A DNA stretch of 64,000 bases from Procambarus clarkii (Eukaryota; Arthropoda; Malacostraca; Decapoda; Cambaridae): positions 45,454,855 to 45,518,854 of the forward strand of contig NC_091176.1 of assembly GCF_040958095.1 (NCBI RefSeq), read 5' to 3'. The position numbers were made by a program, and so were the translations under genes. Below, one piece after another: positions 12,666 through 57,500 of the stretch (position 1 is its first letter; each line of letters starts with the position of its first letter). Below the pieces are notes generated by a model, which saw only the letters and a program-made list of their open reading frames with translations, ran no database searches and had not been told where the DNA came from.

Positions 12666-12700
<35 letters not shown>

Positions 12701-12839: not shown

Positions 12840-12870
<31 letters not shown>

Positions 12871-13061: not shown

Positions 13062-13518
<457 letters not shown>

Positions 13519-37122: not shown

Positions 37123-40100
37123 TCAGCCCCCTCTGCCTCAGCCCCTCTGCCTCAGCCCCTCTGCCTCGACCCTTCTGTCTCAGCCCCTCTGCCTCAGCCC
37201 CCCTCTGCCTATACCCCTCTTACTCTGCCCCTCTACCTCAGCCCCACTACCTCAGCCCCTCTGCCTCAGCCTCTCTGCCTCGGCCCCTCTGCAACTGCCC
37301 CTCTGCCCCTGCCCCTCTGCCTCGGCCCCGCTGCCTCGGCCCCTCTGCCTCGGCCCTTCTGCCTCTGCCCCTCTGCCTTGGCCCCTCTGCCACTGCCCCT
37401 CTGCCTCAGCCCCTCTGCCTCAGCCCCTCTGCCTCAGCCCCTCTGCCGCAGCCTCTCTGCCTCGGCCCCTCTGCCTCTGCACCTCTGCCTCGGCCCCTCT
37501 GCCTCGGCCCCTCTTACCCTGCCCCTCTGCCTCAGCCCCTCTGCCTCAGCCCCTTTGCTTAAGCCCCTGTGCCTCGGTCCCTCTGCCTCAGCCCCTCTGC
37601 CTCAGCCGCTGTGCCTCTGCCCCTCTGCCTCAGCCCCTCTGAATCAGCCTCTCTGCCTCGGCCCCTCTGCCACTGCCCCTCTGCCTCTGCCCCTCTGCCT
37701 CTGCCCCCCTGCCTCGGCCCCTCTGCCTCGGCCCCTCTGCCTTAGCCCTTCTGCCTCTGCCTCTCTGCCTCGGCCCCTCTGCCTCAGCCCTTCTGCCGCT
37801 GCCCCTCTGCCTTGGCCCCTCTGCCACTGCCCCTCTGCCTCAGCCCCTCTGAATCAGCCCCTCTGCCTCAGCCCCTCTGTCTCTGCCCCTCTGCCTCTAC
37901 CCCTCTGCCTCGGCCCCTCTGCCACTGCCCCTCTGCCTCGACCCCTTTGCCTCGACCCCTCTGCCTCGGCCCCTCTACCTCGGCCCCTCTGCCTCGGCCC
38001 CTCTGCCACTGCCCCTCTGTCTCAGCCCTTCTGCCTCAGCCCCTCTGCTATTACCCCTCTGCCTCAGCCCCTCTGCCTCAGCCCCTCTGCCTCGGCCCCA
38101 ATGCCTCGGCCCCTCTGCCTCGACCCCTCTGCCTCAGCCCCTCTGCCTCAGCCCCTCTGCCTCAACCCCTCTGCCTCGGCCTCTCTGCCTCGGCCCCTCT
38201 GCCACTGGCCCTCTGACTCAGCCCCTCTGCTTCAGCCCCTGTGCCTCGGCCCCTCTGCCTCAGCCCCTCTGCATCTGCCCCCTCTTGCTCTGCCACTCTG
38301 CCTCGGGCCATCTGCCACTGCCCCTCGGCCTCGACCCCTCTGCTACAGCCCCTTTGCCTCGGCCATTCTGCCTCGGCCCCTCTGCCTCAACCCCTCTTAA
38401 TCTGCCCCTCTGCACGGCCCCTCTTCCACTTCCCCTCTGCCTCGGCCCCTGTGCCTTGGCCCCTCTGCCTCGACCCCTCTGCCACTGCCCCTCTGCCTCG
38501 ATCCCTCTGCCTCAGCCCCATCTGCCTCATCCTCTCTGCCTCAGCCCCTCTGCCTCTGCCCTTCTGCCTCGGCCTTTCTGTCACTGCCCCTCTGCCACTG
38601 CCCCTCTGCCTCTGCCCCTCTGCCTCGGCCCCTCTGCCTCGGCCCCTCTGCCTCAGCCCCTCTTCCTCAGACCCTCTGCCACTGCCCCTCTGCCTCAGCC
38701 CCTCTGCCTCAGCCCCTCTGCCTCTGCCCCTCTGCCTCGGCCCCTCTGCCACTGCCCCTCTGCCTCGACCCCTCTGCCTCAGCCCCTCTTCCTCAGCCCC
38801 TGTGCCACTGCCCCTCTGCCTCGGCCCCTCTGCCTCAGCCCCTCTGCCTCTGCCCATCTGCCTCAGCCCCTCTGCCTCAGCCCCTCTGCATCAGTCCCTC
38901 TGCCTCAGCCCCTCTGCCTCAGCTCCCTCTGCCTCGGCCCCTCTGCCTCAGCCCCTCTGCCTCAGCCCCTCTGCCTCAGCCCCCTCTGCCTCAGCCCCTC
39001 TTACTCTGCTCCTCTGCCTCGACCCCTCTGCCTCAGACCTTCTGTATCTGCCCCTCTGCCTCGGCCCCTCTGCCACTGCCCCTCTGCCTCGGCCCCACTG
39101 CCTCGGCCCCTCTGCCCCGGCCCCTCTGCCATTGCCACTCTGCCTCGACCCCTCTGCCTCAGCCCCTCTGCCTCTGCTCCTCTTCCTCGGCCCGTCTGCC
39201 ACTGCCCCTCTGCCTCAGCCCCTCTGCCTCTGCCCCTCTGCCTCGGCCCCTCTGCCACTGCCCCTCTGCCTCTGCCCCTCTGCCTCTGCCCCTCTGCCTC
39301 GGCCCCTCTGCCTCAGCCCCTCTGCCTCAGCCCCTCTGCCACTGCCCCTCTGCCTCAGCCCCTCAGCCTCAGCCCCCTTTGCCACCGCCCCTCTGCCTCT
39401 GCCCCTCTGCCTCTGCCCCTCTGCCTCAGCTCTTCTGCCTTAGCTCCTCTGCCTCAGCCCCTGTGCCTCTGCCCCTCTGCTTCGGCCCCTCTGCCACTGC
39501 CCCTCTGCCTCTGCCCCTCTGCCTCTGCCCCTCTGCCTCAGCCCTTCTGCCTCAGCACCCTGTGCCTCAGCCCCTGTGCCTCGGCCCCTCTGCCTTAGCC
39601 CTTCTGCCTCAGCCCCTGTTCCTCTGCCCCTCTGCCTCGGCCCCTATGCCTTAGCCCCTCTGCCTCTGCCCCTCTGCCTCAGCCCCTCTGCCTCATCCCC
39701 TCTGCCTCAGCCCCCTCTGCCTCAGCCCCTCTTACTCTGCCCCTCTGCCTCGACCCCTCTGTCTCAGCCCCTCTGCCTCAGCCCCCTCTGCCTCAGCCCC
39801 TCTTACTCTGCCACTCTGCCTCAGCCCCTCTGCCTCAGCCCCTCTGCCTCAGCCCCTCTGCCTCGGCCCCTCTGCCACTGCCCCTCTGCCTCTGCCCCTC
39901 TGCCTCGGCCCCTCTGCCTCGGCCCCTCTGCCTCAGCCCTTCGGCCTCTGCCCCTCTGCCTCGGCCCCTCTGCCTCGGCCCCTCTGCCACTGCCCCTCTG
40001 CCTCAGCCCCTCTGCCTCAGCCCCTCTGCTACTGCCCTCTGCCTCAGCCCCTCTGCCTCAGCCCCTCTGTCTCAGCCCCTCTGCCACTGCCCCTCTGCCT

Positions 40101-40993
40101 CTGCCCCTCTGCCTCTGCCCCTCTTCCTCAGCCCCTCTGCCTCAGCCCCTCTGCCTCGGCCCCTCTGCCACTGCCCCTCTGCCTCTGCCCCTCTGCCTCG
40201 GCCCCTCTGCCTCGGCCCCTCTGCCTCAGCCCTTCGGCCTTTGCCCCTCTGCCTCGGCCCCTCTGCCTCGGCCCCTCTGCCACTGCCCCTCTGCCTCAGC
40301 CCCTCTGCCTCAGCCCCTCTGCTACTGCCGTCTGCCTCAGCCCCTCTGCCTCAGCCCCTCTGCCTTGGCCCCTCTGCCAATGCCCCCACTGACTCAGCCC
40401 CTCTGAATCAGCCCCTCTGCCTCAGCCCCTCTGTCTCTGCCCCTCTGCCTCTACCCCTCTGCCTCGGCCCCTCTGCCACTGCCCCTCTGCCTCAACCCCT
40501 CTGCCTCGGCCCCTCTACCTCGGCCCCGGCTGCCTCGGCCCCTCTGCCACTGCCCCTCTGCCTCGACCCCTCTGCCTCAGCCCCTCTTCCTCAGCCCCTG
40601 TGCCACTGCCCCTCTGCCTCGGCCCCTCTGCCTCAGCCCCTCTGCCTCTGCCCATCTGCCTCAGACCCTCTGCCTCAGCCCCTCTGCATCAGTCCCTCTG
40701 CCTCAGCCCCTCTGCCTCAGCTCCCTCTGCCTCGGCCCCTCTGCCTCAGCCCCTCTGCCTCAGCCCCTCTGCCTCAGCCCCCTCTGCCTCAGCCCCTCTT
40801 ACTCTGCCCCTCTGCCTCGACCCCTCTGCCTCAGACCTTCTGTATCTGCCCCTCTGCCTCGGCCCTCTGCCACTGCCCCCCTGCCTCGGCCCCACTGCCT
40901 CGGCCCCTCTGCCCCGGCCCCTCTGCCATTGCCACTCTGCCTCGATCCCTCTGCCTCAGCCCCTCTGCCTCAGCCCCTCTGCCTCTGCCCCTC
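37123..40993. repeat. 14-bp satellite, block 2
   Basis: Same 14-bp unit as block 1. A segment at 38763-39190 recurs at 40561-40985 (offset about 1797), including the rare phrase CTGCCCCGGCCCCTCTGCCA, so local duplications have occurred. ORFs here are artefacts. Confidence 0.97.
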
Positions 40994-41044
40994 AGTAGTA
41001 GGGTGTACAGTCCACAGACTACTTTTTTTTTTGGCGAGAGGACC

Positions 41045-41119
41045 CCTGTGGACTGTACAGTCCACAGGCAACTTTTTTTTTTGGGGGAGCGGACCCCTGT
41101 GGACTGTACAGTCCACAGG
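41045..41119. repeat. paired 24-bp palindromes near the left tip
   Basis: Two perfect 24-bp palindromes with half-site CCTGTGGACTGT at 41045-41068 and 41096-41119, separated by a T-run and GGGGGAGCGG. A partial copy (GTGTACAGTCCACAG) lies at the tip near 41003-41017. They are mirrored at 54436-54459 and 54486-54509. They are candidates for transposase/integrase binding or hairpin formation. Confidence 0.85.
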
Positions 41120-43910
41120 GGAATTTTTTTTTTTTCTGGAAATTCGTGTGTAGCGCTTTAGGGTTTTCAGGTGAATTTGGGGACTCACAGATTTGGAATT
41201 AGGGAATTCTTATAATGAAAAATAATGTCATACGAGTTTGTTAAAGTTCTTATGAGAAAAATAATTTCCAAGACATAGAAGTTTGTTAAGGCCTTATGGG
41301 ACAAATTCAAGTAACGTATGTAGCTCTTTAGGGTTTCCAGGAGAACTCTACGGACATGTTTTACATGTTTTCAACTTACAAAATCGTCTATGTAAGCCTT
41401 AGTTATTCATATAAATTTAGAAAATCACCTGTGCGGGCCAGGGTTTTCAGGAGCTCGTACCTCACATCACCTCCCTCCCCCTTACCTCGCAATCTCTCGC
41501 GTCACCTTTATTTACTTTACGCCCGGCCAGCCAGTCGGCTCTTATCATATCTTATCTTCGCCATAATATCTTGACCGTCCCTCCTCTCTCTCTCTCCTTT
41601 CATTCAGTTCAGTTCAACTATTTTCCAACATCGTATGTTTGCTCCTTTTCATTAAGCAAGTCAGTTTTACACAAATAAATCGTGTTAGTAAGCAAGTTCT
41701 AGCTCACGTTCCCCCACCTTACTCCCCTGTCATATAATGAATACTATCATTCCAATCCCTCTAAAATTTAAAAATAATCATATTTCAAACGTAGTTCAAT
41801 ACAGTAATTTAGTTACCAAGCTCCAGCGCTTGTCCTCTGCCTTAGCTCTCTCTCGTATCTTCGTTAGTAACAGTCCAATTTCCCTGAAATTTTTACCCTC
41901 TGTATTTCAGGCTCCGTAAATAAGATCAAAACAGTTATCGAGCTCCAGCGCTTGTCCCCCCCTTATTTCGTTTTATACAAGATCGTTAGTAACAGTCCAA
42001 TTTCCCTGAAATTTTTACCCTCTGTATTTCAGACACCGTAAATAAAATCAAGTCAGTTACTGAACTCCAGCTCTCGTCCCCGCCTTAGTTCTCTTTCATA
42101 TCTTTGTAAATAATACATCAATTCCCCTGAAATTTTTACCCTCTGTATTTCAGACACCGTAAATAAAATCAAGTCAGTTATCGAGCTCCAGCTCTCGTCC
42201 CCGCCTTAGTTCTCCTTCGTATCTTTGTAAATAACCCATCAATTTCCCTAAAATTAAAAGCAGACATACTTCAAAGTTAGTAAATAAGATCAAGTCAGTT
42301 ACTGAGCTCCAACTCTCGTCCCCACCTTAGTTCTCTCTCGTATCTTTGTAAATAACCCATCAATTTTCCCCTGAAATTTTTACCCTCTGTATTTCAGACA
42401 TAGTAAATATGATGAAAACAATTATAAAACTCTAGCTCTTGTCCTCTGTCCAAGTTCACTCATGTAAATTCATTACTATCAGTCCAAATCCCCCTGAGAT
42501 TTAAACACCCAACTACATTTTCAGACATAGTAAATAAAAACCAGTTCAGTTATCAAGTTTCAACTCTTGTGCCCCAGCTTAGTTCATTTGTGCAAGTTCT
42601 TTATTTTCCAACTAAATCACCCTGAGATTTAAGATCACCTTATTTTCTAACGTAGTAAAATTAATCTGGACATTAGCCTTAGATCATCAGACATAAATAT
42701 ATTCGATCAAGTCCGTCTCCAGCTTATCTCTTATCCGAGTACACACATAACCCCAACCTGTTTAATTATCTTTCACCCCCTCCCACCTTCCTCCATCTCA
42801 TCCAAGTCTCATAAATTTAAATGTAGCTGTTAATTTGCGTTCTTTCCCCGTTCATAGCATATTCTCTGTAAGTTCAGATCTGTACTTAGTCTTACATATT
42901 CTCTAGTTCTTTCCCATTTTATACAAGACTTAAACAACTATTACCGTCTCCTCTATCTTATTTAAACATGAGTCATATGTAAATATACCCGACTCTTTCC
43001 ATCCATTACAAGTCCTAGCTTGTTCACCGCCCAACTCACTACGCTATTTCTACTCTACATGTTATAGCATGTTTTCCGCTCATCTTGGTACCAACCCTTA
43101 CAATCTCTCTCTCATTCCTTTACATGTCTCAGCATGTTCGCCTCGCATCTTACTACGCTGTTTACTTTACATGTTGTAGCATGTATTACTGTGTCCCATA
43201 TCTTATTTAAACATGAGTCATATGTAAATATACCCGACTCCTTCCATCCATTACAAGTCCTAGCTTGTTCACCGCCCAACTCACTACACTGTCTACTTTA
43301 CATGTTGTAGCATGTTTTCCGCACATCTTGATACCATCCCTTACAATCTCTCAATCCTTTACACATCCCAACTTTCAACCCTTTCTTACAATTTTCCTCC
43401 ATCCCTCCGCTACATGTTCTTACCCGTTCATTACAGTCCACTACATATTCTCTAATCATCTCTGTACTAATTCTCAAAACTAGTTGTTTCTGTCATTTTA
43501 GTAAGTAAGTAAGTAGATCATCGTTATTAACAACGACAACAACAACAACAGTAACATTACTAATTCACAGTAAGTTACTACTGAGCATTTGGCAGTTATC
43601 CATTTTCAAAATAAGGTCAATATAAATCATTCTAAGACATCTTCGTACAATTAAAGATACTTGCTTGTGCACTAAGTCATTACTTACAGTAGCATCTTAA
43701 GGCATTGTTTTCGTAACTCAGTTTTATTAAACATACACCTTCATTAGTCAAAGGAAAACTTTTCAAGTCATTGTATTCAATATTTCCGTTAAACTTACTA
43801 CATCATGTCATTATTCGGTTTCATAATTAAGTACTTGTTTCAGTCCTCCAATGTAATAAGCAAATTATTCTATTAAGGATAAAGAAATCTTATTTAGAAG
43901 AGACATTAAG

Positions 43911-43916
43911 TTTATT
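43911..43916 (-). terminator. poly(A) signal in left inverted repeat
   Basis: AATAAA on the minus strand, about 65 bp beyond the IAP stop codon, embedded in the inverted repeat. Confidence 0.6.
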
Positions 43917-43980
43917 ACAACATTTAACGCATACAGTTATTCTTAGTAGTTATACAAGTGTTCAAGAAAATCATAAGTGT

Positions 43981-45437
43981 TCAAGAAGCAATTGGATTTA
44001 TTATATATAAAATATTTCCTCTACAAATTGGACAGCATTTCAGAGCTAAAAGACAACCACTGCATGTCACCATATGTTTACATGGTAGTATTACAATATT
44101 TATATTTTTATCCATACAAACTCTGCATAAAATATCTTCTTCCCAAGATTGTTCTGTACAGTCCTTGTTTTCAACAGTGTTAGTACAAGTCTCCGGTAAA
44201 GTTTTCAATCCCAGATCTTCAAGCGTAACTTCTTGTTCCTTTTTATCATCAACTGCTTCATAAATTAAGTCCCGTACCCGTAAATAAATATCTGTTCCCT
44301 CTTGCATATACCTCAACACGATTTCTAGACATCTACTTTGTATAATAAAAGGTAACAAATCTCTGGATTCCTTAAGGTACTCACTTAAAGCATATCTTAT
44401 ACTCTCCACAGGTATTAATTTTTGATGAATCAGATGTTTGAACTTATCCATACCCTCCATTAAGATATTAATTAAATCATTGTCTATAGGTTTTATAGGT
44501 AATGGTATTGTCAATCTAGCATTCTTAACAAATTCCTTGCCCCTTGCAAGAATAATGTAAGCACATTCTGGACTACATCTCGCATGTAACGTCCAAGGAT
44601 CATCTTCTGGTCTCCAATTTCGTATTCCACAGGCGCAGTGATAGCAGCAGACGTGGTCACTTATACCTGAAAACCATAAAACAATCCAGCATTATCTCGT
44701 TACTATCTTTTAACTAATATTCATTATTTCTTTACTTATAACTCTATTAAGTTTAAAATAGTTAAAACACTTCATACCACAGTAAAAAAAACCAGCTTCT
44801 GCCAGCTCATGAGAAGTTTGCTTGACGCTTCCAGGCCATGTCATATCAAATGTCTCTAGGCGACATTTATAAGTTACCAATCCTGGATTCAGCGATTTCC
44901 TAAATTTTATCAATCCCAGATCTTCCTTAGGAGGAGCACCACCTAAAAAAATATAACGTAGTTACGTAAATTATTCTTTAGAAGAATAAGAAGTATCTAT
45001 TTAAGCAATCAAGTTTTGTACAGAGTATATAAGACTGGTATAAGAATACATCATAAGAATATATACTTACTACTATCACTTATTTTCTTATTTCCCAGTT
45101 CTATTTTATGGGAAACAAATTCCAGTCCATATTTGAAAGCTATCTCAGACACCTCTAAAGAAACATTGTCACTCCTCTTGCCTCTAATAAAGGCACAGTC
45201 TTGATTAATGATCTTATGACGTCTTCTGGGGGTATCACCAACAATCCATGCACCTACTATACAATAACAAAATGCACACAAACAGTAATCACTATTGCGA
45301 AGGTAATAGAACCCATCTTCAACTAAGTCAATAGGGTTTAACCACTTAATGGGCCAACCCACAAATGTTTGTAGTCTAACTCCTGCACATTTAAGGCTTT
45401 CTATACTGTAAAACTTCCTGGCACACAAAGGATCCAT
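43981..45437 (-). CDS. IAP, BIR-BIR-RING, three exons
   Basis: Exons are 45437-45071, 44942-44778 and 44666-43981, with GTAAGT and GTATGA donors, TTTTAG and TTTCAG acceptors and phase 1 at both junctions; total 405 aa. BIR1 (about 20-84) has C54, C57, H74 and C81. BIR2 spans exons 2-3 (CRLETFDMTWP, then GISDHVCCYHCACGIRNW and a distal His/Cys). A C3HC4 RING ends the protein (CRVCMDKN, PCKHMVTCSGC, CCPICRG). Such IAPs inhibit caspases and ubiquitinate targets through the RING. Introns set it apart from the intronless BIR gene at 8921. All key residues are present and no lesion is seen. Confidence 0.92.
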
Positions 45438-45478
45438 CGTGTGAGGGCAGCACTAACTATTAGAGTAGGATAAGCAAG

Positions 45479-45488
45479 TATATATATC
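45479..45488 (-). promoter_or_regulatory. TATA box of the IAP gene
   Basis: GATATATATAC on the minus strand, about 42-51 bp upstream of the IAP start codon. Confidence 0.6.
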
Positions 45489-45920
45489 CCTAAAATAAGT
45501 ATCGTACATCGCTACATATTTAACAGTTTCCCCATTTATAATAGACAGTAATCTCCTCTAAATACTTCTCTATTTAAAAATCCTTAAAGTTTCATAATTA
45601 AATAAAGCTCTTATATAAATACTTAGTAAACTACTTTCATTATTTATTAGACTTATTAGAAAAATACATCACTTTGGCAATCTCGCTAAAAGTATACTGT
45701 TACGTCATTATTCGTAGCTGCCGTACATAATGATAGATATATATATATATATAATTTAGTAGTAAATTCTTATTTAATCTAATTAAAATATATGCTTAAA
45801 GCACCTATATCCTAAAATGAAATATACTATTAGTTATAATGTAATATATAATATCACTCTAAGGTAACAAAAATCCTTATTAATATATTCAAATAAGTGG
45901 TAACTTTTACATTTCCCCCA
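45489..45920. other. intergenic region between IAP and the first macro gene
   Basis: About 430 bp between two divergent promoters. It is AT-rich with a (TA)n run near 45737-45752. No gene seen. Confidence 0.5.
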
Positions 45921-45928
45921 ATATAAGA
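45921..45928 (+). promoter_or_regulatory. TATA box of macro gene 1
   Basis: CAATATAAGAGCGCGG, a TATA box with a GC-rich right flank, about 80 bp upstream of the start at 46005. Confidence 0.65.
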
Positions 45929-46004
45929 GCGCGGACCTCACATTAGGGATATTATTACGACTATCTGGATCGTATCTACTACCTTACGAGGAAGAAAATT
46001 CACC

Positions 46005-46625
46005 ATGGATACTGTTCTGACAACTTGTCAGGGTTATTTAACCGACGATTCATTTTGTAATAATGAAACCTGTATTGTGTACGGAGTGAACTGTATATCC
46101 TGCGTTCCCCGAGGAATGGCCCTAGACTTAGCCAAGAAATATTCTCATGCTGACGCTTATAATGTTCGCCGACCCTTGTACAGTCTTAAGAGATGTATCC
46201 CTGAAGATCGTCCAGTACCAGGAACAATTCATATCTCTAAAGGAGAAAATCTTCCGTATATTGTTGCTATAGCCACACAATACGGTATTGGATTACCTAT
46301 AGAGAGTAATAACATTGCTCAGGGAATTATAGAAAACTCAAAAGACAGAAACATGCTCTCTGGATTAAACGAAGATACATCCATTAATCGTCTCGTCTAC
46401 TTCAAGAATGGTATGAAAGATTTATTTAACTTTATCAAGGGCTCTCCTCAAATTATGAGAGTTATAATACCAACAGGAATTGGGATTACATGTGTTCGAA
46501 GAGATAAAGTTTGGGAAAATACTTATCTTCCTGTTATTGAAGATATGTATAAACAGTTAAAACCCTACGGAGTGGAAGTTAAATTACTGTTTAACGAGGA
46601 GATTATGCAGAGGAAGAGCAAGTAA
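46005..46625 (+). CDS. macro-domain protein 1 (ADP-ribose binding/hydrolase-like)
   Basis: A 206-aa intact frame with the sequence order of Poa1p/TARG1-type macro domains: GVNCISCVPRGMALDLAKKY (residues about 27-46), a central LPYIVAIATQYGIG strand, and VIIPTGIGITCVRRDKVWENTYLPVIED (about 153-180). Such proteins bind ADP-ribose and can remove it from proteins or nucleic acids; some viral macro domains counter host ADP-ribosylation. The second of the usual paired Gly residues near the catalytic loop is changed (RGMAL). Closest relatives appear to be its two neighbours. Confidence 0.82.
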   Translation: MDTVLTTCQGYLTDDSFCNNETCIVYGVNCISCVPRGMALDLAKKYSHADAYNVRRPLYSLKRCIPEDRPVPGTIHISKGENLPYIVAIATQYGIGLPIESNNIAQGIIENSKDRNMLSGLNEDTSINRLVYFKNGMKDLFNFIKGSPQIMRVIIPTGIGITCVRRDKVWENTYLPVIEDMYKQLKPYGVEVKLLFNEEIMQRKSK

Positions 46626-46676
46626 CACTTGGCAACCTTTTGTGTGCGCAGTGTTTCTACGCGCAGCCTAAAGATG

Positions 46677-46684
46677 TATATATG
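46677..46684 (+). promoter_or_regulatory. TATA box of macro gene 2
   Basis: GTATATATGC about 50 bp after the stop of macro gene 1 and about 80 bp before the start at 46763; this supports the 46763 ATG over the earlier in-frame ATG at 46640. Confidence 0.55.
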
Positions 46685-46762
46685 CTTCCCCCGAGTGATC
46701 TCTTACGGTGTCCTCCTCTTCTTGGATGTCAGAATCTACTTCAAGCTTGGATATTCAAGGCT

Positions 46763-47662
46763 ATGGAGATCAAGACTATTATTGGAGACTTTGCCTCCCT
46801 GTCCGTCTACAATAATCACGACTGTTTATTGTACGATCTTGATGCTACGAGTGTACAAATGTGTAAAATTGTGCAAGGATTGTGGGATCGTTACCCATAT
46901 GCGAGATTACATCGCGAAAACTTTCCTTACAAAAACAGGGCATTTGTATCTTATCGCAGTAACCCTGGCAGTATACATATTGGAGAACCACCTGAATTTA
47001 ACAACAGGATGGATGAAGATCCCCATCTACCCCTTATTATTGGTTTAGTGACTCAGTTTGCTAGTAGACCTGCAACTTTACCAGCATATGAAAATCCTCC
47101 GTGTGAAGTACGAAGTTTAGATGAACATTTTTACGATGGACTTGAAAAAGATACAGAATATCAGAGATGGCGCTGGTTTGAAAATGCTCTGAAGGAAGCC
47201 CTTGTTTTCATTCTTAAAAGATGTGTTAAGAGAATTATTATTCCATATGGGTTTGGCATGTCAAGTTATTTGGACAACTGCGCAGTATGGGAAAGTAAAT
47301 ATTTGCCTATACTTGAGAAAATAGGACAAAAACTACGAAAACGAGGTATTGTACTCTTCATAGTACGTCCTGAAAACATCGTTCCTCCTCAGTCATCCAC
47401 CCACGGCATCTTTGAAAATAAGATTCCATACATTGCTGTTCTTCAAAATGGACCCACAACTAATGCTACTGATGCTGCTAGGACACCTGAAGATGATGCT
47501 ACGCCTGCCACCGCTGATGCTAGTTCACCTTCTATCAACACTAAGTTGTCTGATACAATTAATTCAACACCTGTTAATGTTACTACGTCTGTTGATACTA
47601 ATGTTACAATGTGTGTTAGTAGTAGTTTTACAAATTTAGAAGAGAAGATGGATTGGGAATAA
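46763..47662 (+). CDS. macro-domain-like protein 2 with Thr/Ser-rich tail
   Basis: A 299-aa protein if started at MEIKTIIGDF. It keeps the overall layout of macro protein 1: DCLLYDLDATSVQMCKIVQGLW in place of the VNC...GxA loop, LPLIIGLVTQF, and RIIIPYGFGMSSYLDNCAVWESKYLPILE. The ADP-ribose-contacting Asn and the GxG loop are altered, so binding may be changed or lost. Residues after about 235 are Thr/Ser/Asp-rich and disordered. An in-frame ATG at 46640 is less likely because a TATA box follows it. Confidence 0.72.
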   Translation: MEIKTIIGDFASLSVYNNHDCLLYDLDATSVQMCKIVQGLWDRYPYARLHRENFPYKNRAFVSYRSNPGSIHIGEPPEFNNRMDEDPHLPLIIGLVTQFASRPATLPAYENPPCEVRSLDEHFYDGLEKDTEYQRWRWFENALKEALVFILKRCVKRIIIPYGFGMSSYLDNCAVWESKYLPILEKIGQKLRKRGIVLFIVRPENIVPPQSSTHGIFENKIPYIAVLQNGPTTNATDAARTPEDDATPATADASSPSINTKLSDTINSTPVNVTTSVDTNVTMCVSSSFTNLEEKMDWE

Positions 47663-47806
47663 TAATGTCTGTAAATAATTTATACTTTGTACATTTTTAC
47701 AAATTAAATACATTGTACATTTTTACACATTAAATAACAAAATAGAAACTCGTGTGTTTATTTTCTCCCTTTTTTAATGTCTAAATGTCAACTCTACTTT
47801 TCTGAG

Positions 47807-47813
47807 TATATAG
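47807..47813 (+). promoter_or_regulatory. TATA box of macro gene 3
   Basis: GAGTATATAGGAAGAGG about 40 bp before the start at 47849. It lies inside a longer ORF (from 47777), whose first codons are therefore probably not translated. Confidence 0.55.
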
Positions 47814-47848
47814 GAAGAGGTACGAAACTTTTTCTGTCTTACTTCAAG

Positions 47849-49826
47849 ATGGATTGTTCTATGTACATGCAAGTGAAGCTTAAGCGTTTGAATAAGTGTA
47901 TTATAGATGCTGATTTTACTAGTGATGAAATTCTAAAACCTGGAGACTGTCTTGTCTACGATTCTCATAATTTATCTGGTGGATTTGCACAACTGTTATG
48001 GGAAAAATATCCTTACAGTAAAGTTTCCGAGTGTGAAGTGGTACAGAATAATATAACTCCTGGTGGTATAGTACTTGCTTTATCTCCAGAACCAGAAATA
48101 AAACCTCATATTATAGGACTTCATGTAACACTGTAAAAGTGTTTGGGTTAGTTTATTTAAAATATATATAGAATATGAGTCACAGACAGGGATTTGGAAA
48201 GGCGCCAAGTTGTCGGCGGAGATCTCACACCTCTAACCGTTAATGACCCCAAGTGACCTGAGGTCAGATCATGAGAATTTCACCTTGCTTCCGCTAAGCT
48301 CTTAATTGTAGTCTGGTAGCCTTCAAACAAGCCGACGTTTAAGGAGTGGCTTGGTAGTGCCGGAGGCTATCTACTTGTGGGCGGAGTTAGCTACTAGGTT
48401 CCCCAATATAAACTCGGAGAGCTATCCAGCAGGAGGCATTAACAGACAGAACGGCAGTCAGGATTGCAGAAGAGACGGCCTAGCAGGAAGGCTGTCGGCC
48501 GGCAGGGCGGGAGTCTCTGTCAACTACAGACCCCCCCCCCCCCCCCCCTCTATCCAGCTATAGGCAGAGACACTTGGTGAGTGAACAGTAAGGTGACTTG
48601 TCGTGTTTTACAAGTGTTGTGTGATGATCAGGGGCAGTCAAGTTGTAGGGTTCTCGAATTCTTGGATGATGACTCACTTTGCATATTAAACTGGAACATT
48701 TTAATTGAATTGCTAAATTATGATACTTCATGTGAAATATAATTATGAATTTATTATTTAAATTGTGTTTAACTTTGTTCCCTAGAGCTTTGAGTTGAGG
48801 ATTTGAGAAAGCCTCTGTGGTTACTGGGTTCATGATATAAATGAGTGCATGGTTTAGAATGAGTACATGATAAAGATGGGACCATGCTAATAATGATCTC
48901 TTGATAACATCCTTTGAGAATTTTGTGATACAGGCAAGTTCCATTCCTTGTCTTGTATGTAATGATCATGAATGGATGGTGGCAGCATTTCGTCTTTTAC
49001 TATCTACTCTTCTACGTCTACTATCTACTCTTCTACTTCTACCTATCTACACCTCTCCCTCCACCCCTCTCTCAACTCTCACTTTCAACTAATGACCCTC
49101 CTCGCTCCTCCCACCTCTCTGCCTCTCACCCCAAACCCTCACTAATTTCTTCACTATTCATTTCTTTCCTTTCGTTTTCTCTTATACGTTTGGGGCAATG
49201 ATTTTGTATTCTAGAGTTCTCTCTAGAGTTTCGGGTAACTGATCAAGTGACGGCGCCTTGTAGTCTTAGCACCTAGGTAGTCAAATACCTAAGTTACAAG
49301 GTGTTGAACGAGAGAGGTTGCCTTAGGAACTCTGGGAGTGCTCTAGAATAGTTAGCTAACTGGGGACGGGATAACGGACTAGAGAGAGCTGTTTCCCCCG
49401 GCCTCGTTAGTTAACTGGGGGGGGTGGAATAATGGACAAGATAGAGCTATTTCCCCCACCCCCCGTTACATTCAATACAGTAGCTCTAATGAAGATCTAG
49501 GATTACAGAAAGATATTATTAAACGTTGGAGTTTTAAATCTGCAATAAGACAAATTTGTTGTCAGGCAAGAAATAATAATTTAATCCAGCGTATAATTAT
49601 TCCATATGGTATTGGGTTTAATGACGGAATAGGATGGAGTAAAGAAGAACAAGAAGAATGGGAGACACACTATTTTCCAGGACTAGCCCATTTAGCTTAT
49701 GTTTTAAAGAATAATAAAAAAGAATTATTAATGGTTCGTATACCTCTTGGAGAAGATGTTACGGGGACTGGGAGAGAGAAGAAACACGTAGAGGGTGGAT
49801 CTAATAAACGGAAGAGAATGTCATAG
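47849..49826 (+). pseudogene. macro-domain-like protein 3, split by a solo LTR
   Basis: The upstream part (47849-48123) starts MDCSMYMQVKLKRLN and carries DCLVYDSHNLSGGFAQLLWEK. The downstream part (49475-49826) carries RIIIPYGIGFNDGIGWSKEEQEEWE and a basic tail. Between them lies a 1347-bp LTR with TTCA duplications; removing it and one duplication keeps the frame, giving about 208 aa, the size of macro protein 1. Motifs resemble macro genes 1 and 2. As it stands the gene is broken, with an early stop in the LTR (48136). Confidence 0.85.
48124..49470 (+). mobile_element. solo LTR in macro gene 3
   Basis: Begins TGTAACACTG and ends CCCCCCGTTACA (TGTAAC/GTTACA ends) and is flanked by TTCA (48120-48123 and 49471-49474). 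A TATA box (CCAATATAAACTCGG, about 48401-48415) sits in the middle, as in an LTR promoter. There are no coding domains. The poly-C run at 48531-48548 is notable. It differs from the 999-bp LTR at 32091. Orientation is assigned from the TATA box. Confidence 0.85.
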
Positions 49827-49930
49827 TTAAAACTAGTAGATCTAAAATAATACATATAACTAATTTGGAAACTACAGCTAAGAGAGAGGGGCGGAGCGTA
49901 ACAATCTCCGATGTGATAAGCTAGGTCGGG

Positions 49931-49937
49931 ATATATC
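49931..49937 (+). promoter_or_regulatory. TATA box of the methyltransferase-like gene
   Basis: CGGGATATATCTTGCC about 55 bp before the ATG at 49990. Confidence 0.55.
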
Positions 49938-49989
49938 TTGCCATAAACTCCCCATCTCGGTCCAGCAGTGAGAAGACATACTCGGATCG

Positions 49990-51405
49990 ATGGCTGCTGT
50001 ATACAGTAAGTGCTTATTGTATGATGTACTTACAGTACTCGTTATATTTGTTGTGATATAATTTTGCTTATTATTGAATATCTTTTAGTTTTGAAATATT
50101 ATGATTATTTAATAGTCCCTGTGTTAAATATTGTATTTTTCTTTGTTTAAAGATCTACCCCATGTGATGGATGTGAAGAGTCTACCAGGGTTTGGAAGCA
50201 TGCCTGATCTTGTGTCAGAAACTATATGGCAAAGTCCAGCTTCGACTGTTTTGTGGAAGAATATGCCCCTGGCGGAAAAACAGACTTATAAAGTGATGAC
50301 ACATACTGATAAATGTACGCATGAGAACATTGTTCCAGCTCTAGCAAAGTTTATTAGCAAAAGTGAAAATGTTTTAATGATACTGATTGGTCGTGATTTT
50401 ATAAAGTTGAAAGAAGAACTTCCATTGATAAAATGTGACATAGTCTTATTTAGCTTAAAAGAGAGTGTTACAGATGTACTCAAGAAACATGAGAATTGTC
50501 AAGTGTTGTTGCTGACGAAAATTCCTAGTAAGGCCGAGATGAAGAAAATTTCTTTGTTATTTAAAGGCGATAAAATAATTTGCACTTTTAGACCTAAACC
50601 CCGTTTTAAATACATATTTCCAGAATTTGAAGAAGTGCCTATAGGATGTAACTTAAAGGATAAATTTTTTATAAGAAAATTTGTGGATGAAATTGGTTCT
50701 CCAAATGCTGCAAACTGGTTTATTAATAAGTTGAGTTCTGAAGAACGAGAAGTGTATACTATAATGAGCCAGGATGAACTGCAACAGCAGGTAAATAGTA
50801 AGACTGTGAAAGAGCTTAGTATTATTCACCCTAAAACGGAAGAAGATGAACATTGGAGTTTAATTGATCATATGGAGGAGAGCTTTCCATCTTTTCCGTT
50901 AAATTTAATAAAGATGAGACCAGAAATAGGATATCATACCCCCCAAAAGATAGAAATAGAGGCAGTGATGAGATTTATAGGACAGGATCCTGTACTTGGT
51001 GTTTTCTCTGGTATGGCCTTTATTGAAAATCTTATTAGGATAAGACATACTAATGTGGTACGAGCTACAGATAATTACTCGAATATGGGTGAGAGTAAGT
51101 GGATGGAGGTTGAACAAATGGATGCTGTAGAAGCAGTTAGGACTTATTGTAATGACAGAGAAGTACTTCTAATGTCCTGGCCTGAATTGATTTGTGATGA
51201 TAATGTTTATAGCGATGCTTTCTATGTTTTAAAGGAATTTAAGGGACAAAAACTAATCTATTTTGGAGAAGGGGAAGGGGGATGCTGTGCATGTGATGGA
51301 TTTTTTAACTTGCTGGATAGTGAGTTTCATTGTGTGAAATCAAATACATGTTTTACTTATAATTCTTTTATAAATTCAAATGTTTATTTCTATATAAGAC
51401 TGTAG
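49990..51405 (+). CDS. two-exon protein with SAM-methyltransferase-like C-terminal domain
   Basis: A 16-nt first exon (49990-50005) starts ATGGCTGCTGTATACA and ends at GTAAGT; exon 2 begins after TTTAAAG at 50153 in matching phase and runs to 51405, giving 422 aa. The last 150 residues match a Rossmann methyltransferase-like fold: VLGVFSGMAFIENLI in place of the GxGxG loop, VVRATDNY, QMDAVEAVRTYCNDREVLLMSWPE, and LIYFGEGEGGCCACDGFFNLL. The SWP and GEGxGGC segments occur in a little-studied family in fungi, algae and giant viruses. The SAM loop is degenerate, so catalysis is uncertain. The first 270 residues are unrecognised. Using the 50131 ATG instead would ignore the splice pair. Confidence 0.65.
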
Positions 51406-51574
51406 TGTTTATGATTTCTTGAATACCTGTATAACTACTAAGAACACTTGTATATGATTTTCTTTAACAGTTATGATTTCTTGAACACTTGTATAACTAC
51501 TATGAATACCTGTATATGATTTTCTTGAACACTTGTATAACTACTATGATTACCTGTATAACTACTAAGAACAC
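51406..51574. repeat. tandem repeat between gene 5 and the right inverted repeat
   Basis: Imperfect units of CTTGAACACTTGTATAACTA with TATGATTTT spacers continue to about 51630. The array straddles the inner border of the right inverted repeat; only one to two units exist at the left end, so the repeat has expanded here. Confidence 0.75.
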
Positions 51575-51638
51575 TTGTATATGATTTTCTTGAACACTTG
51601 TATAACTACTAAGAACACTTGTATGCGTTAAATGTTGT

Positions 51639-51644
51639 AATAAA
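51639..51644 (+). terminator. poly(A) signal in right inverted repeat
   Basis: AATAAA on the plus strand, about 235 bp beyond the methyltransferase-like gene stop, the mirror image of the signal at 43911-43916. Confidence 0.55.
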
Positions 51645-54435
51645 CTTAATGTCTCTTCTAAATAAGATTTCTTTATCCTTAATAGAATAATTTGCTTATT
51701 ACATTGGAGGACTGAAACAAGTACTTAATTATGAAACCGAATAATGACATGATGTAGTAAGTTTAACGGAAATATTGAATACAATGACTTGAAAAGTTTT
51801 CCTTTGACTAATGAAGGTGTATGTTTAATAAAACTGAGTTACGAAAACAATGCCTTAAGATGCTACTGTAAGTAATGACTTAGTGCACAAGCAAGTATCT
51901 TTAATTGTACGAAGATGTCTTAGAATGATTTATATTGACCTTATTTTGAAAATGGATAACTGCCAAATGCTCAGTAGTAACTTACTGTGAATTAGTAATG
52001 TTACTGTTGTTGTTGTTGTCGTTGTTAATAACGATGATCTACTTACTTACTTACTAAAATGACAGAAACAACTAGTTTTGAGAATTAGTACAGAGATGAT
52101 TAGAGAATATGTAGTGGACTGTAATGAACGGGTAAGAACATGTAGCGGAGGGATGGAGGAAAATTGTAAGAAAGGGTTGAAAGTTGGGATGTGTAAAGGA
52201 TTGAGAGATTGTAAGGGATGGTATCAAGATGTGCGGAAAACATGCTACAACATGTAAAGTAGACAGTGTAGTGAGTTGGGCGGTGAACAAGCTAGGACTT
52301 GTAATGGATGGAAGGAGTCGGGTATATTTACATATGACTCATGTTTAAATAAGATATGGGACACAGTAATACATGCTACAACATGTAAAGTAAACAGCGT
52401 AGTAAGATGCGAGGCGAACATGCTGAGACATGTAAAGGAATGAGAGAGAGATTGTAAGGGTTGGTACCAAGATGAGCGGAAAACATGCTATAACATGTAG
52501 AGTAGAAATAGCGTAGTGAGTTGGGCGGTGAACAAGCTAGGACTTGTAATGGATGGAAAGAGTCGGGTATATTTACATATGACTCATGTTTAAATAAGAT
52601 AGAGGAGACGGTAATAGTTGTTTAAGTCTTGTATAAAATGGGAAAGAACTAGAGAATATGTAAGACTAAGTACAGATCTGAACTTACAGAGAATATGCTA
52701 TGAACGGGAAAAGAACGCAAATTAACAGCTACATTTAAATTTATGAGACTTGGATGAGATGGAGGAAGGTGGGAGGGGGTGAAAGATAATTAAACAGGTT
52801 GGGGTTATGTGTGTACTCGGATAAGAGATAAGCTGGAGACGGACTTGATCGAATATATTTATGTCTGATGATCTAAGGCTAATGTCCAGATTAATTTTAC
52901 TACGTTAGAAAATAAGGTGATCTTAAATCTCAGGGTGATTTAGTTGGAAAATAAAGAACTTGCACAAATGAACTAAGCTGGGGCACAAGAGTTGAAACTT
53001 GATAACTGAACTGGTTTTTATTTACTATGTCTGAAAATGTAGTTGGGTGTTTAAATCTCAGGGGGATTTGGACTGATAGTAATGAATTTACATGAGTGAA
53101 CTTGGACAGAGGACAAGAGCTAGAGTTTTATAATTGTTTTCATCATATTTACTATGTCTGAAATACAGAGGGTAAAAATTTCAGGGGAAAATTGATGGGT
53201 TATTTACAAAGATACGAGAGAGAACTAAGGTGGGGACGAGAGTTGGAGCTCAGTAACTGACTTGATCTTATTTACTAACTTTGAAGTATGTCTGCTTTTA
53301 ATTTTAGGGAAATTGATGGGTTATTTACAAAGATACGAAGGAGAACTAAGGCGGGGACGAGAGCTGGAGCTCGATAACTGACTTGATTTTATTTACGGTG
53401 TCTGAAATACAGAGGGTAAAAATTTCAGGGGAATTGATGTATTATTTACAAAGATATGAAAGAGAACTAAGGCGGGGACGAGAGCTGGAGTTCAGTAACT
53501 GACTTGATTTTATTTACGGTGTCTGAAATACAGAGGGTAAAAATTTCAGGGAAATTGGACTGTTACTAACGATCTTGTATAAAACGAAATAAGGGGGGGA
53601 CAAGCGCTGGAGCTCGATAACTGTTTTGATCTTATTTACGGAGCCTGAAATACAGAGGGTAAAAATTTCAGGGAAATTGGACTGTTACTAATGAAGATAC
53701 GAGAGAGAGCTAAGGCAGAGGACAAGCGCTGGAGCTTGGTAACTAAATTACTGTATTGAACAACGTTTGAAATATGATTATTTTTAAATTTTAGAGGGAT
53801 TGGAATGATAGTATTCATTATATGACAGGGGAGTAAGGTGGGGGAACGTGAGCTAGAACTTGCTTACTAACACGATTTATTTGTGTAAAACTGACTTGCT
53901 TAATGAAAAGGAGCAAACATACGATGTTGGAAAATAGTTGAACTGAACTGAATGAAAGGAGAGAGAGAGAGGAGGGACGGTCAAGATATTATGGCGAAGA
54001 TAAGATATGATAAGAGCCGACTGGCTGGCCGGGCGTAAAGTAAATAAAGGTGACGCGAGAGATTGCGAGGTAAGGGGGAGGGAGGTGATGTGAGGTACGA
54101 GCTCCTGAAAACCCTGGCCCGCACAGGTGATTTTCTAAATTTATATGAATAACTAAGGCTTACATAGACGATTTTGTAAGTTGAAAACATGTAAAACATG
54201 TCCGTAGAGTTCTCCTGGAAACCCTAAAGAGCTACATACGTTACTTGAATTTGTCCCATAAGGCCTTAACAAACTTCTATGTCTTGGAAATTATTTTTCT
54301 CATAAGAACTTTAACAAACTCGTATGACATTATTTTTCATTATAAGAATTCCCTAATTCCAAATCTGTGAGTCCCCAAATTCACCTGAAAACCCTAAAGC
54401 GCTACACACGAATTTCCAGAAAAAAAAAAAATTCC

Positions 54436-54509
54436 CCTGTGGACTGTACAGTCCACAGGGGTCCGCTCCCCCAAAAAAAAAGTTGCCTGTGGACTGTACA
54501 GTCCACAGG
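54436..54509. repeat. paired 24-bp palindromes near the right tip
   Basis: Mirror copies (54436-54459 and 54486-54509) of the left-tip palindromes, with A-runs between. The tip has a partial copy up to CACCCTACTACT. Confidence 0.85.
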
Positions 54510-54560
54510 GGTCCTCTCGCCAAAAAAAAAAGTAGCCTGTGGACTGTACACCCTACTACT

Positions 54561-57500
54561 CCCCTCTGCCTCGGCCCCTCTGCCACTGCCCCTCTGCCTC
54601 AGCCCCTCTGCCTCTGCAGAGGCAGAGGGGCTGAGGCAGAGGGGCAGAGGCAGAGGGGCCGAGGCAGAGGGGCTGAGGCAGAGGGGTCGAGGCAGAGTGG
54701 CAATGGCAGAGGGGCCGGGGCAGAGGCATCATGCACCACCGCCCACCACCGCCCCTCTGCCTCTGCCCCTCTGCCTCTGCCCTTCTGCCTCGGCCCCTCT
54801 GCCACTGCCCCTGTGCCTCTGCCTCGGCCCCTCTGCCTCGGCCCCCCTGCCTCGGCCCCTCTGCCTCGGCCCCTCTGCCTCAGCCCCTATGCCTCAGCCC
54901 CCTGCCACTGCCCCTCTGCCTCAGCCCCTCTTACTCTGCCACTCTGCACGGCCCCTCGGCCACTGCCTCTCTGCCTCGGCCCCTCTGCCTCGGCCCCTCT
55001 GCCTCGGCCCCTCTGCCTCAGCCCCTCTTCCTCAGCCCCTCTGCCACTGCCCCTCTGCCTCGACCCCTCTGCCTCGACCCCTCTGCCTCAGCCCCTGTGC
55101 CTCTGCCCCTCTGCCTCGGCCCCTCTTCCTCTGCCCCTCTGCCTCAGCCCCTCTGCCTCAGCCCCCTCTGCCTCAGCCCCTCTGCCCCTGCCCCCTCTTC
55201 CTCTGCCCCTCTGCCTCAGCCCCTCTGCCTCAGCCCCCTCTGCCTCGGCCCCTCTGCCTCAGCCCCTCTGCCTCAGCCCCTCTGCCTCAGCCCGTCTTAC
55301 TCTGCCCCTCTGCCTCAGCCCCACTGCCTCAGCCTCTGTGCCTCGGCCCCTCTGCCACTGCCCCTCTGCCTCTGCCCCTCTGCCTCGGGCCGGCCTCTGC
55401 CTCGGCCTCTCTGCTTCAGCCCTTCTGCCTCTGCCCCTCTGCCTCGGCCCCTCTGCCACTGCCCCTCTGCCTCGGCCCCCCTGCCTCGGCCCCTCTGCAC
55501 CGGCCCTTCTGCCACTGCCCCTCTGCCTCGACCCCTCTGCCTCAGCCCCTCTGCCTCAGCCCCTCTGCCTCTGCCCCTCTGCCTAGGCCCCTCTGCCTCA
55601 GCCCCTCTGCCTCAGCCCCTCTGCCTCAGCCCCTCTGCCACCGCCCCTCTGCCTCTGCCCCTCTGTCTCTGCCCTTCTGCCTCAGCCCCTCTGCCTCAGC
55701 TCCTCTGCCTCAGCCCCTGTGTCTCGGCCCCTCTGCCTTAGCCCCTGTGCCTCAGCCCCTGTGCCTCTGCCCCTCTGCCTCGGCCCCTCTGCCTCAGCCC
55801 CTCTGTCTCAGCCTCTCTGCCTCGGCCCCTCTGCCACTGCCCCTCTGCCTCTGCCCCTCTGCCTCTGCCCCTCTGCCTCAGCCCCTCTGCCTCAGCCCCT
55901 GTGCCTCGGCCCCTCTGCCTTATCCCCTCTGCCTCAGCCCCTGTGCCTTTGCCCCTTTGCCTCGGCCCCTCTGCCTCAGCCGCTTTGCCTCTGCCCCTCT
56001 GCCTCAGCCCCTCTGCCTCATCCCATCTGCCTCGGCCCCTCTGCCTCAGCCCCCTCTGCCTCGGCCCCACTGACTCAGCCCCTCTGCCTTAGCCCCTCTG
56101 CCTCAGCCCCTGTGCCTTTGCCGCTTTGCCTCGGCCCCACTGACTCAGCCCCTCTGTCTCAGCCCCTCTGCCTCAGCCCCTCTGCCTCGACCCCTCGGTC
56201 TCAGCCCCTCTGCCTCAGCCCCCTCTGCCTCTGCCCCTCTTACTCTGGTCCTCTGCCTCAGCCCCTCTGCCTCAGCCCCTCTGCCTCAGCCTCTCTGCCT
56301 CGGCCCCTCTACCACTGCCCCTCTGCCTCAGCCGCTCTGCCTCATCCCCTGTCCCTCGGCCCCTCTGCCTCAGCCCCTCTGCCTCAGCCCCTGTGCCTCT
56401 GCCCCTCTGCCTCGGCCCCTCTGCCTCAGCCCCTCTGCCTCTGCCCTTCTGCCTCAGCCCCTCTGTATCAGCCCCTCTGTCTCAACCCCCTCTGCCTTGG
56501 CCCCTCTGCCTTGGCCCCTCTGCCTCAGCCCCTCTGCCTCAGCCCCCTCTGCCTCAGCCCCTCTTACCCTGCCCCCCTGCCTCAGCCCCTCTGCCTCAGC
56601 CCCTCTACCTCAGCCTCTCTGCCTCGGCCCCTCTGCCACTGCCCCTCTGCCTCTGCCCCTTTGCCTCTGCCCCTTTGCCTCGGCCCCTCTGCCTCGGCCC
56701 CTCTGCCTCAGCCCTTCTGCCTCTGCCCCTCGGCCACTTTGCCACTGCCCCTCTGCCTCAGCCCCTCTGCCTCTGCCCCTCTGCCACTGCCCTTCTGCCT
56801 CAGCCCCTTTGCCTCAGCCCCTCTGCCACTGTCCCTCTGCCTCTGCCCCTCTGCCTCTGCCCCTCTGCCTCAGCCCCTCTCCCTCAGCCTCTCTGCCTCG
56901 GCCCCTCTGCCACTGCCCCTCCGCCTCGGCCTCTCTGCCTCGGCCCCTCTGCCACTGCCCCTCCGCCTCGGCCCCTCTGCCTCGGCCCCTCTGCTCGGCC
57001 CCTCTGCCACTGCCCCTCGGCCTCTGCCCCTCTGCCTCGGCCCCTCTGCCTCGACCCCTCTGCCACTGCCCCTCTGCCTTGACCCCGCTGCCTCAGCCCT
57101 TCTGCCTCAGCCCCTCTACCTCGGTCTTTCTGCCATTGCCCCTCTGCGTCTGCTGCCTCGGCCCCTCTGCCTCGGCCCCTCTGCCTCAGACCCTCTGCCA
57201 CTGCCCCTCTGCCTCAGCCCCTCTGCTTCAGCACCTCTGCCTCAGCCCCTCTGCCTCTGCCCCTCTGCCTCGGCCCCTCTGCCACTGCCCCTCTGCCTCG
57301 ACCCCTCTGCCTCGGCCCCTATGCCTCAGTCCCTCTGCCCCTGCCCATCTGCCTCAGCCCCTCTGCCTTGGCCCCTCTGCTTCAGCCCCTCTGCCTCAGC
57401 CCCTCTGCCTCAGCCCCCTCTGCCTCAGCCCCTATTACTCTGCCCCTCTGCCTCAGCCCCTCTGCCGTTGCCCCTCTGCCTCAGCCCCTCTGCCACTGCC

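What the first reader, a model, noticed from the sequence alone, without database searches (positions are those of the whole stretch)
40994..54560. 13.6-kb Polinton-ended element carrying only anti-defence-like cargo
Seen: AG...CT ends, about 3-kb near-identical inverted repeats, 6-bp CCCCTC duplication, five genes (IAP, three macro-domain-like, one methyltransferase-like) and no mobility, polymerase or capsid gene. Known: Polintons/Mavericks and adintoviruses have AG ends, long inverted repeats and 6-bp duplications. Inference: a non-autonomous, virus-mobilised cargo cassette whose genes suppress apoptosis and ADP-ribosylation signalling. I know of no described element with this gene set.
Basis: partly seen in the sequence, partly recalled or inferred. 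Interest (0 to 1): 0.93.

Follow-up and report, generated by a model that had tools for sequence, protein, structure and literature searches.

The report
Gene-carrying partner of a crayfish virus-transposon
In a crayfish genome, mobile DNA pieces with the same ends and nearly the same length as a virus-like transposon carry, instead of its replication and shell genes, genes that look suited to blocking cell death and handling a defence-related protein tag.

Summary
Observation confirmed. The 13,567-bp element has AGTAGTAGGG tips, 2.98-kb inverted repeats (99.7% alike), a 6-bp duplication, and carries IAP, three macrodomain-like genes and one unidentified gene ('methyltransferase' is unsupported). 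In the same 4.03-Gb genome (probably Procambarus clarkii) the unidentified gene scored 101 matches (93 without stop) and the first macro gene 130 close ones; 96 of the 101 have that macro gene within 15 kb. Nine copies of the unidentified gene show purifying selection (omega about 0.4). An element with the same tips, C31 (13,357 bp), encodes PolB-like, packaging-ATPase, integrase-chromodomain and capsid-like proteins; its capsid-like gene scored 91 matches at 99-100%. Of 18 two-tipped elements, 1 is helper, 3 cargo, 14 carry neither gene set and are mostly near-palindromic; none has both. Fourteen non-helper elements measure 12.6 +/- 0.6 kb; a further one consists of two shorter pieces joined to 12.15 kb. 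Best reading: cargo elements are unit-length satellites or second segments of an adintovirus-like Polinton, using its polymerase, integrase and probably capsid. Mobilisation by Polinton machinery is strongly supported; packaging and cargo function are inferred.

The parts
40988..40993 (.). left copy of the 6-bp target-site duplication CCCCTC
54561..54566 (.). right copy of the 6-bp target-site duplication CCCCTC
40994..43975 (+). left terminal inverted repeat, 2,982 bp; tip AGTAGTAGGG, 51-bp repeats at 41004-41134, 121-bp tandem repeats at 41811-42409
   Evidence: 99.7% identical to the right arm; exact over 2,902 bp; repeats; tips
51580..54560 (-). right terminal inverted repeat, 2,981 bp
45071..45437 (-). 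IAP exon 1 (first BIR)
   Evidence: Pfam BIR E 5e-14; GTAAGT donor read by eye
44778..44942 (-). IAP exon 2 (first half of second BIR)
   Evidence: BIR profile positions 1-33, E 3.5e-6 for the surrounding open frame; splice sites read by eye
43981..44666 (-). IAP exon 3 (second half of second BIR, RING)
   Evidence: BIR positions 30-69 E 7e-10, RING E 1.3e-12 for the surrounding open frame; acceptor read by eye
46005..46625 (+). macA, macrodomain-like, 206 aa
   Evidence: 27% identical to macB, E 2e-16; 150 scored matches in the genome
46763..47662 (+). macB, macrodomain-like, 299 aa
47777..48123 (+). macC, 5' part (third macrodomain-like gene, broken in this copy)
   Evidence: 97% to C21 and C400 copies; frame open in C21
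48124..49470 (.). 1,347-bp LTR-like insert TGTAAC...GTTACA between TTCA duplications (48120-48123, 49471-49474)
   Evidence: absent from C400 and C21
49475..49826 (+). macC, 3' part
   Evidence: 98-99% to C21 and C400 copies
49990..50005 (+). short 5' coding exon of the 422-aa protein gene (called MT in the report)
   Evidence: P. clarkii protein P0001 begins MAAVYNLPHV
50153..51405 (+). main exon of the 422-aa protein gene (MT), function unknown

Best explanation
The element is a unit-length, cargo-carrying satellite (or second genome segment) of an adintovirus-like Polinton that is itself abundant in the same genome. SHOWN: it shares tips, 6-bp duplication and approximate length with that Polinton; its gene block has spread to about a hundred or more places; its MT gene evolves under purifying selection; helper and cargo genes sit on separate elements wherever looked at. 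INFERRED: the Polinton's protein-primed PolB copies it from the shared tips, the capsid takes it up (which would hold members near 12-13.5 kb), and the Polinton integrase with its chromodomain inserts it, often in tandem-repeat arrays. INFERRED: the cargo keeps the infected cell alive (IAP) and strips or reads ADP-ribose marks (macrodomains), to the advantage of the satellite and perhaps of the helper. The gene-less palindromes would be defective unit-length molecules made by fold-back copying and carried along in the same way.
For: Shared tips and 6-bp duplications: 16 of 18 two-tipped elements, helper C31 included; 6 of 6 further helper copies looked at end in AGTAGTAGGG near the predicted place. 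Helper genes in C31: integrase core E 8e-9, chromodomain 4e-6, Pox_A32-type ATPase 1e-7; 1,297-aa ORF with PolB motifs read by eye. Separate gene sets: of 18 two-tipped elements 1 has only helper genes, 3 only cargo genes, 14 neither; scored MT and capsid hits are never closer than 67 kb, macA and capsid hits never closer than 58 kb. Length: 14 non-helper elements 12,586 +/- 632 bp against 13,357 for C31 although they share only about 0.4-0.8 kb of each end with it (measured on ten elements); C187 reaches 12,151 bp as 4,311 + 15 + 7,825 with an intact outer duplication. Amplification: MT 101 scored of 624 candidates, 93 without stop; macA 150 scored of 1,932, of which 130 at 79-100% and 20 at 62-63%; 96 of 101 MT places have macA within 15 kb, 92 at near-constant spacing. 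Selection: 51 of 94 MT changes in nine copies non-synonymous against 74% expected, p 2e-5.
Against: No virion, transcript or mobilisation data. Subterminal repeats differ between copies, so a given helper may not serve every satellite. 2 of 4 further cargo copies showed no tip in the stretch fetched. C71a is 8.0 kb (possibly a folded assembly) and C124 showed no second tip. The searches score best candidates first, so intact copies are over-represented. Pooled over the four genes compared in three cargo copies (macB and IAP exon 2 not compared) the ratio is only 0.37-0.59; IAP exon 1 (0.73 and 1.20, few changes) gives no sign of constraint and IAP exon 3 gives 0.49-0.66. PolB, capsid and protease assignments in C31 did not reach Pfam thresholds.
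Confidence: 0.6

Rival explanations
1. An ordinary non-autonomous Polinton that captured host or viral genes as passengers; it moves by the helper's enzymes, with no packaging, and its constant length is inherited from the ancestor rather than selected.
For: Shared ends and duplications need only the replication and integration enzymes. IAP exon 1 shows no constraint between three copies. Non-autonomous derivatives are common among DNA transposons (general knowledge).
Against: MT keeps omega about 0.4 and the macA-MT spacing is kept in 92 of 101 copies. Cargo and gene-less interiors share one length class near that of the helper, and the end-joined C187 composite comes to the same length.
Confidence: 0.25
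2. Cargo as host defence: the elements are kept because IAP or macrodomains limit other viruses such as nimaviruses, as integrated virophages are thought to do against giant viruses.
For: IAP genes and macrodomain wsv206-like genes occur in crustacean nimaviruses (PMC10871703, PMC7016691, passages); macB's best viral fold match is a nimavirus protein; a BIR-bearing large-virus-like block lies 31 kb upstream in the window.
Against: IAP and macrodomains in viruses usually help the virus, not the host (general knowledge). Most examined insertions are in tandem arrays (12 of 17 on both sides). No tie to nimavirus load was tested.
Confidence: 0.1
3. Assembly or chimeric-read artefact of one inverted segment.
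For: C286 and C71a have inverted-complement flanks and may be such artefacts.
Against: Direct 6-bp duplications at 16 of 18 loci; arms within some copies differ clearly (C12 about 6%, C71b about 4%); the cargo interior is asymmetric and its genes recur at about a hundred places.
Confidence: 0.02

Closest known systems
Polintons/Mavericks and adintoviruses
   Different: The window element has none of these genes. It carries IAP, three macrodomain-like genes and an unidentified gene at nearly the same total length. At 13.4 kb C31 is also shorter than the 15-20 kb given in PMC4028283 (passage).
Phage-inducible chromosomal islands (PICIs)
   Same: Satellite hijacking a helper's functions, with cargo of its own (as described in PMC6431247, passages)
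   Different: Animal host, protein-primed linear DNA expected, and length close to the helper's instead of a smaller capsid. Packaging is not shown here.
Segmented bidnaviruses with adintovirus-class PolB
   Same: Genome divided over separate DNA molecules (PMC11071296, passages)
   Different: Here the molecules are Polinton-length, integrated, and the second one holds only genes that look accessory.
Endogenous nimaviruses
   Same: Intron-bearing IAP genes, macrodomain wsv206-like genes, insertion into simple repeats (PMC10871703, PMC7016691, abstract and passages)
   Different: Those named in the passages are 280-579 kb genomes with tyrosine recombinases; no Polinton ends are mentioned there.
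Foldback/Galileo-type elements
   Same: Very long, internally repetitive inverted repeats (abstract of PMC3573991 in the listing)
   Different: Galileo is assigned to the P-element group; here tips and duplications match a PolB/integrase element.

Membership tests
Polinton/Maverick | AG...CT tips, inverted repeats and 6-bp target-site duplication | tested here: met
   for the window; 16 of 18 two-tipped elements have the duplication
Polinton/Maverick | encodes protein-primed PolB, rve integrase, packaging ATPase and capsid proteins in the element itself | tested here: not met
   none in the window element; so it is not an autonomous Polinton
Polinton/Maverick | a relative with the same tips encodes integrase and packaging ATPase | tested here: met
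   C31: rve 7.6e-9, chromo 4.4e-6, Pox_A32 1e-7; tips
Polinton/Maverick (C31) | PolB and double jelly-roll capsid | tested here: inconclusive
   no meaningful Pfam, PHROG or PDB sequence match; PolB motifs and ORF order read by eye
Adintovirus | PolB with OTU-like N-terminus; hexon recognisable by BLASTp to adintoviruses | not tested
   definition from PMC11071296 (passage); no adintovirus reference was at hand
Satellite or segment packaged by a helper | replicates and is packaged only with the helper | not testable with these tools
   needs particles or transposition assays
Satellite or segment packaged by a helper | unit length close to the helper | tested here: met
   14 non-helper elements 12,586 +/- 632 bp against 13,357; small sample, mostly gene-less elements; C71a (8.0 kb) and C286 left out as suspect assemblies
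IAP family | BIR domains plus C-terminal RING | tested here: met
Macrodomain | macrodomain fold | tested here: met
Macrodomain hydrolase | ADP-ribose hydrolysis | not testable with these tools
   catalytic residues not established
Methyltransferase (412/422-aa protein) | methyltransferase profile or fold | tested here: inconclusive
   no methyltransferase hit in Pfam, PHROGs or NCBIfam; AlphaFold2 model failed, pLDDT 31

The most novel reading that the evidence does not exclude
A Polinton-type animal virus with a divided genome: one unit-length segment carries replication, integration and capsid genes, a second one carries a conserved host-control block (IAP, three macrodomains, one unknown protein), and gene-less unit-length palindromes ride along as defective molecules. 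All are packaged in the same shell and all are written into the germline by the same integrase.
Probability: 0.4. Interest if true: 0.93.

Novelty: new variant of a known kind. Interest (0 to 1): 0.82.

Why it matters
Whether animal Polintons still form particles is an open question (my understanding of the field). A family whose different interiors are all held near one length, and which has a counter-defence-like gene block with a gene under selection, is what packaging would leave behind, and it makes the question testable in a farmed, easily kept animal. If true it would be a satellite or divided-genome system in Polinton-type animal viruses; the listings of my ten text searches, several of them capped, showed no description of one.

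Tried and rejected
Artefact of one inverted segment: rejected for the window copy, kept as likely for C286 and C71a. Register coincidence of CCCCTC: made unlikely by 15 other loci with a 6-bp duplication. Relatives in IMG/VR: none for the C31 capsid-like ORF, for P0001, or for one ORF of the upstream block (close relatives only). Wider homologs: MT found one protein, its C-terminal part none, macB two. PDB sequence searches gave nothing of use for PolB, capsid, macB or P0001 (the only hit under 0.01 was a dihydrodipicolinate synthase for macB, E 0.0087). The AlphaFold2 model of MT failed. A pattern count of palindromic repeats (second list) was badly framed and is not used. IAP copy number and a host IAP parent were not obtained: the machine was busy. 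The integrase search did not complete. C31 was one of ten tip pairs found with this window's tip, so it is not a random helper copy. No random-site control was made for the tandem-array insertion preference.

Papers: abstracts in listings and the passages named were seen; no paper was read whole. Starrett et al. 2021 is not held.
Full report
What is in the window. Element 40994-54560 (13,567 bp) lies in a 14-bp satellite array. It begins and ends with AGTAGTAGGG / CCCTACTACT, has arms of 2,982 and 2,981 bp at 99.7%, and is flanked by CCCCTC on both sides. Inside are an IAP gene on the minus strand in three exons (BIR; a second BIR split by an intron; RING), three macrodomain-like genes in a row on the plus strand (macA, macB, macC), and a gene (called MT here) for a 422-aa protein with a 16-nt 5' coding exon. 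The exon lengths read give 406 and 423 codons including stop, by arithmetic, without joining letters. macC is interrupted by a 1,347-bp LTR-like insert flanked by TTCA, so this copy is already damaged; subtracting insert and duplication its length would be 12,216 bp.

Host. The 412-aa ORF matches an annotated Procambarus clarkii protein of 422 aa over its full length, with two differences. The genome held is 4.03 Gb in 2,308 contigs, larger than the 2,735-Mb assembly listed in PMC10454600 (passages). P. clarkii or a very close relative is therefore my reading; it was not tested further.

It is one of a family. The 200-bp tip gave 49 matches, only 40 of 1,833 candidates being scored. Besides the window, ten convergent pairs on one contig, 11.2-13.4 kb apart, were fetched; all ten and the window have matching tips and perfect 6-bp duplications (11 of 11). 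Of the eight, five gave a second tip at 12.1-13.4 kb (C71b, C58, C286, C54, C1), C71a gave 8.0 kb, C187 was a composite and C124 showed no second tip. Four of the five have the duplication; C286 does not, its flanks being inverted complements, and the same holds for C71a. C187 has it. In all, 16 of 18 two-tipped elements.

Three kinds of interior. (1) Helper: C31, 13,357 bp, with about 1 kb of inverted repeats. Its ORFs include 1,297 aa with the polymerase motifs DFNSLY, NSLYGK and YTDTDS read by eye (that these are PolB motifs is recalled), an ATPase (Pox_A32 E 1e-7), integrase (rve 7.6e-9) with chromodomain (4.4e-6), a 467-aa capsid-like ORF and a protease-like ORF whose Peptidase_C48 match is below the cut-off. 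(2) Cargo: the window, C21 and C400; against the window the cargo proteins and exons are 96.6-100% identical. (3) Neither: the other 14 two-tipped elements. tblastn with the cargo and helper proteins found nothing in them, helper genes only in C31 and cargo genes only in the window, C21 and C400. Seven of the 14 (C12, C234, C38, C32, C78, C35, C46) have arms reaching near the centre and no ATG ORF above 161 aa. For C71b, C58, C286 and C54 the near-diagonal match covers all or all but 10 bases of the left stretch; for C1 it covers 2,509 bases; each part of C187 has inverted ends of its own. C71a was not measured.

Arms and age. Arms within one palindrome are 94-99% alike while different palindromes are 77-95% alike, by BLAST pieces. 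So either the arms are renewed together, as copying of one half from the other would do, or the copies inserted recently. That they are maintained by replication is inference.

Length. Fourteen non-helper elements (C71a, C286 and the composite C187 left out, window included with its insert) average 12,586 bp, SD 632, range 11,162-13,567. The ten that were compared with C31 share about 0.4-0.8 kb of each end with it. C187 joins a 4,311-bp and a 7,825-bp tip-bounded piece through a 15-nt linker into 12,151 bp with outer duplication CCACAC. I read this as selection for one unit length, most simply by a capsid. The sample is small and began with the best matches to this window's tip.

Copy number and separation. 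MT: 101 of 624 candidates scored, all over the full 412 aa at 94-100%, 93 without stop. macA: 150 of 1,932 scored, 130 at 79-100% (120 without stop; a few are partial) and 20 at 62-63% (all without stop), the latter a second cargo-like lineage not near any scored MT hit. Capsid-like ORF of C31: 91 of 3,015 scored, all 99-100%, 88 without stop. Scoring takes the best first, so these are lower bounds and biased to intact copies. 96 of 101 MT places have macA within 15 kb; 92 have it at 2,786-3,550 bp between the start coordinates as listed. The two clusters near 2,811 and 3,429 differ by the 618 bp between the lengths of the two matches, that is by strand; the window (4,162, with its insert) and three places at 9.0-9.8 kb depart. 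The nearest MT-capsid distance is 67 kb and the nearest macA-capsid distance 58 kb, so in these capped lists no element holds both sets.

Other helper and cargo ends. Six other helper copies all show AGTAGTAGGG near the distance predicted from C31, with varied repeats behind it. Of four cargo copies, two show it and two show no tip in 651 bp. One cargo tip (C4 copy) resembles the tip of one helper copy (C18) more than it resembles the window's.

Selection. Nine MT copies (window, C21, C400 and six chosen from the more divergent end, two of them with a stop) give 94 classified changes (two stop changes set aside): 51 non-synonymous, 74% expected at kappa 3, p 1.9e-5, omega about 0.41; singletons and shared changes do not differ. 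Between the three cargo copies, pooled over MT, macA, macC and IAP exons 1 and 3, the ratio is 0.37-0.59; macA alone 0.07-0.27, IAP exon 3 0.49-0.66, IAP exon 1 0.73 and 1.20 with few changes, the 5' part of macC 0 to 1.31. Purifying selection is thus shown for MT, suggested for macA, and not shown for IAP; macB was not tested.

Target sites. Of 17 elements examined, both flanks of 12 lie in tandem arrays (at least 89% of the flank), three more have one such flank in whole or part (C31, C35, C78), and two have none (C12, C71b). There is no control with random sites in this repeat-rich genome.

Novelty. Searches for non-autonomous, defective or satellite Polintons (no paper with any of six phrases, listings), Polinton with IAP or macro domain, Maverick with P. 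clarkii and Polinton with crayfish (one paper, a repeat census) showed no such description in the open library searched. Listings were capped, and subscription journals and Repbase were not searched. It is filed as a new variant of a known kind: a non-autonomous Polinton in descent, but with a conserved cargo block, unit length and a gene under selection, which I would not expect of an ordinary non-autonomous element.

Noticed in passing
window 844-22000: Block of large-DNA-virus-like ORFs beside the satellite: integrase core (7504-8394, E 4.5e-7), BIR protein (8921-9952, E 3e-40), NIF-type phosphatase (19291-20478, E 1e-11) and several unmatched ORFs, two regions of which (14227-16170 and 16378-17990) look related by eye. 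Possibly an endogenous nimavirus-like segment; not identified.
   Followed up: partly
window 24000-32000, 37123-40993, 54561-61000: Degenerate 14-bp satellite (CCCCTCTGCCTCAG) over about 18 kb (first block judged by composition and ORFs only), with a local strand switch at 54616-54726, just right of the element.
   Followed up: no
window 33787-35175: Retroelement gag/protease-like ORF (DUF1758 E 1e-7) between two satellite blocks.
   Followed up: no
L039-L040 (C187): Composite of two tip-bounded pieces joined end to end through a 15-nt linker (AGGGTGTAACACCCT), inserted as one unit; C124 (L033) shows a similar outward tip-to-tip junction.
   Followed up: partly
L035-L036 (C286), L041 (C71a): Flanks are exact inverted complements of each other over the bases shown, and the C71a flank equals that of C71b: probable folded assembly.
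   Followed up: partly
Subterminal repeats vary widely between copies, even among helper copies whose capsid-like ORFs are almost identical, while repeats within one tip mostly match each other; this suggests tip turnover or tip exchange.
   Followed up: no
Second macA lineage (62-63% identity, 20 copies scored, all without stop), away from scored MT and capsid hits: probably a second cargo family.
   Followed up: no
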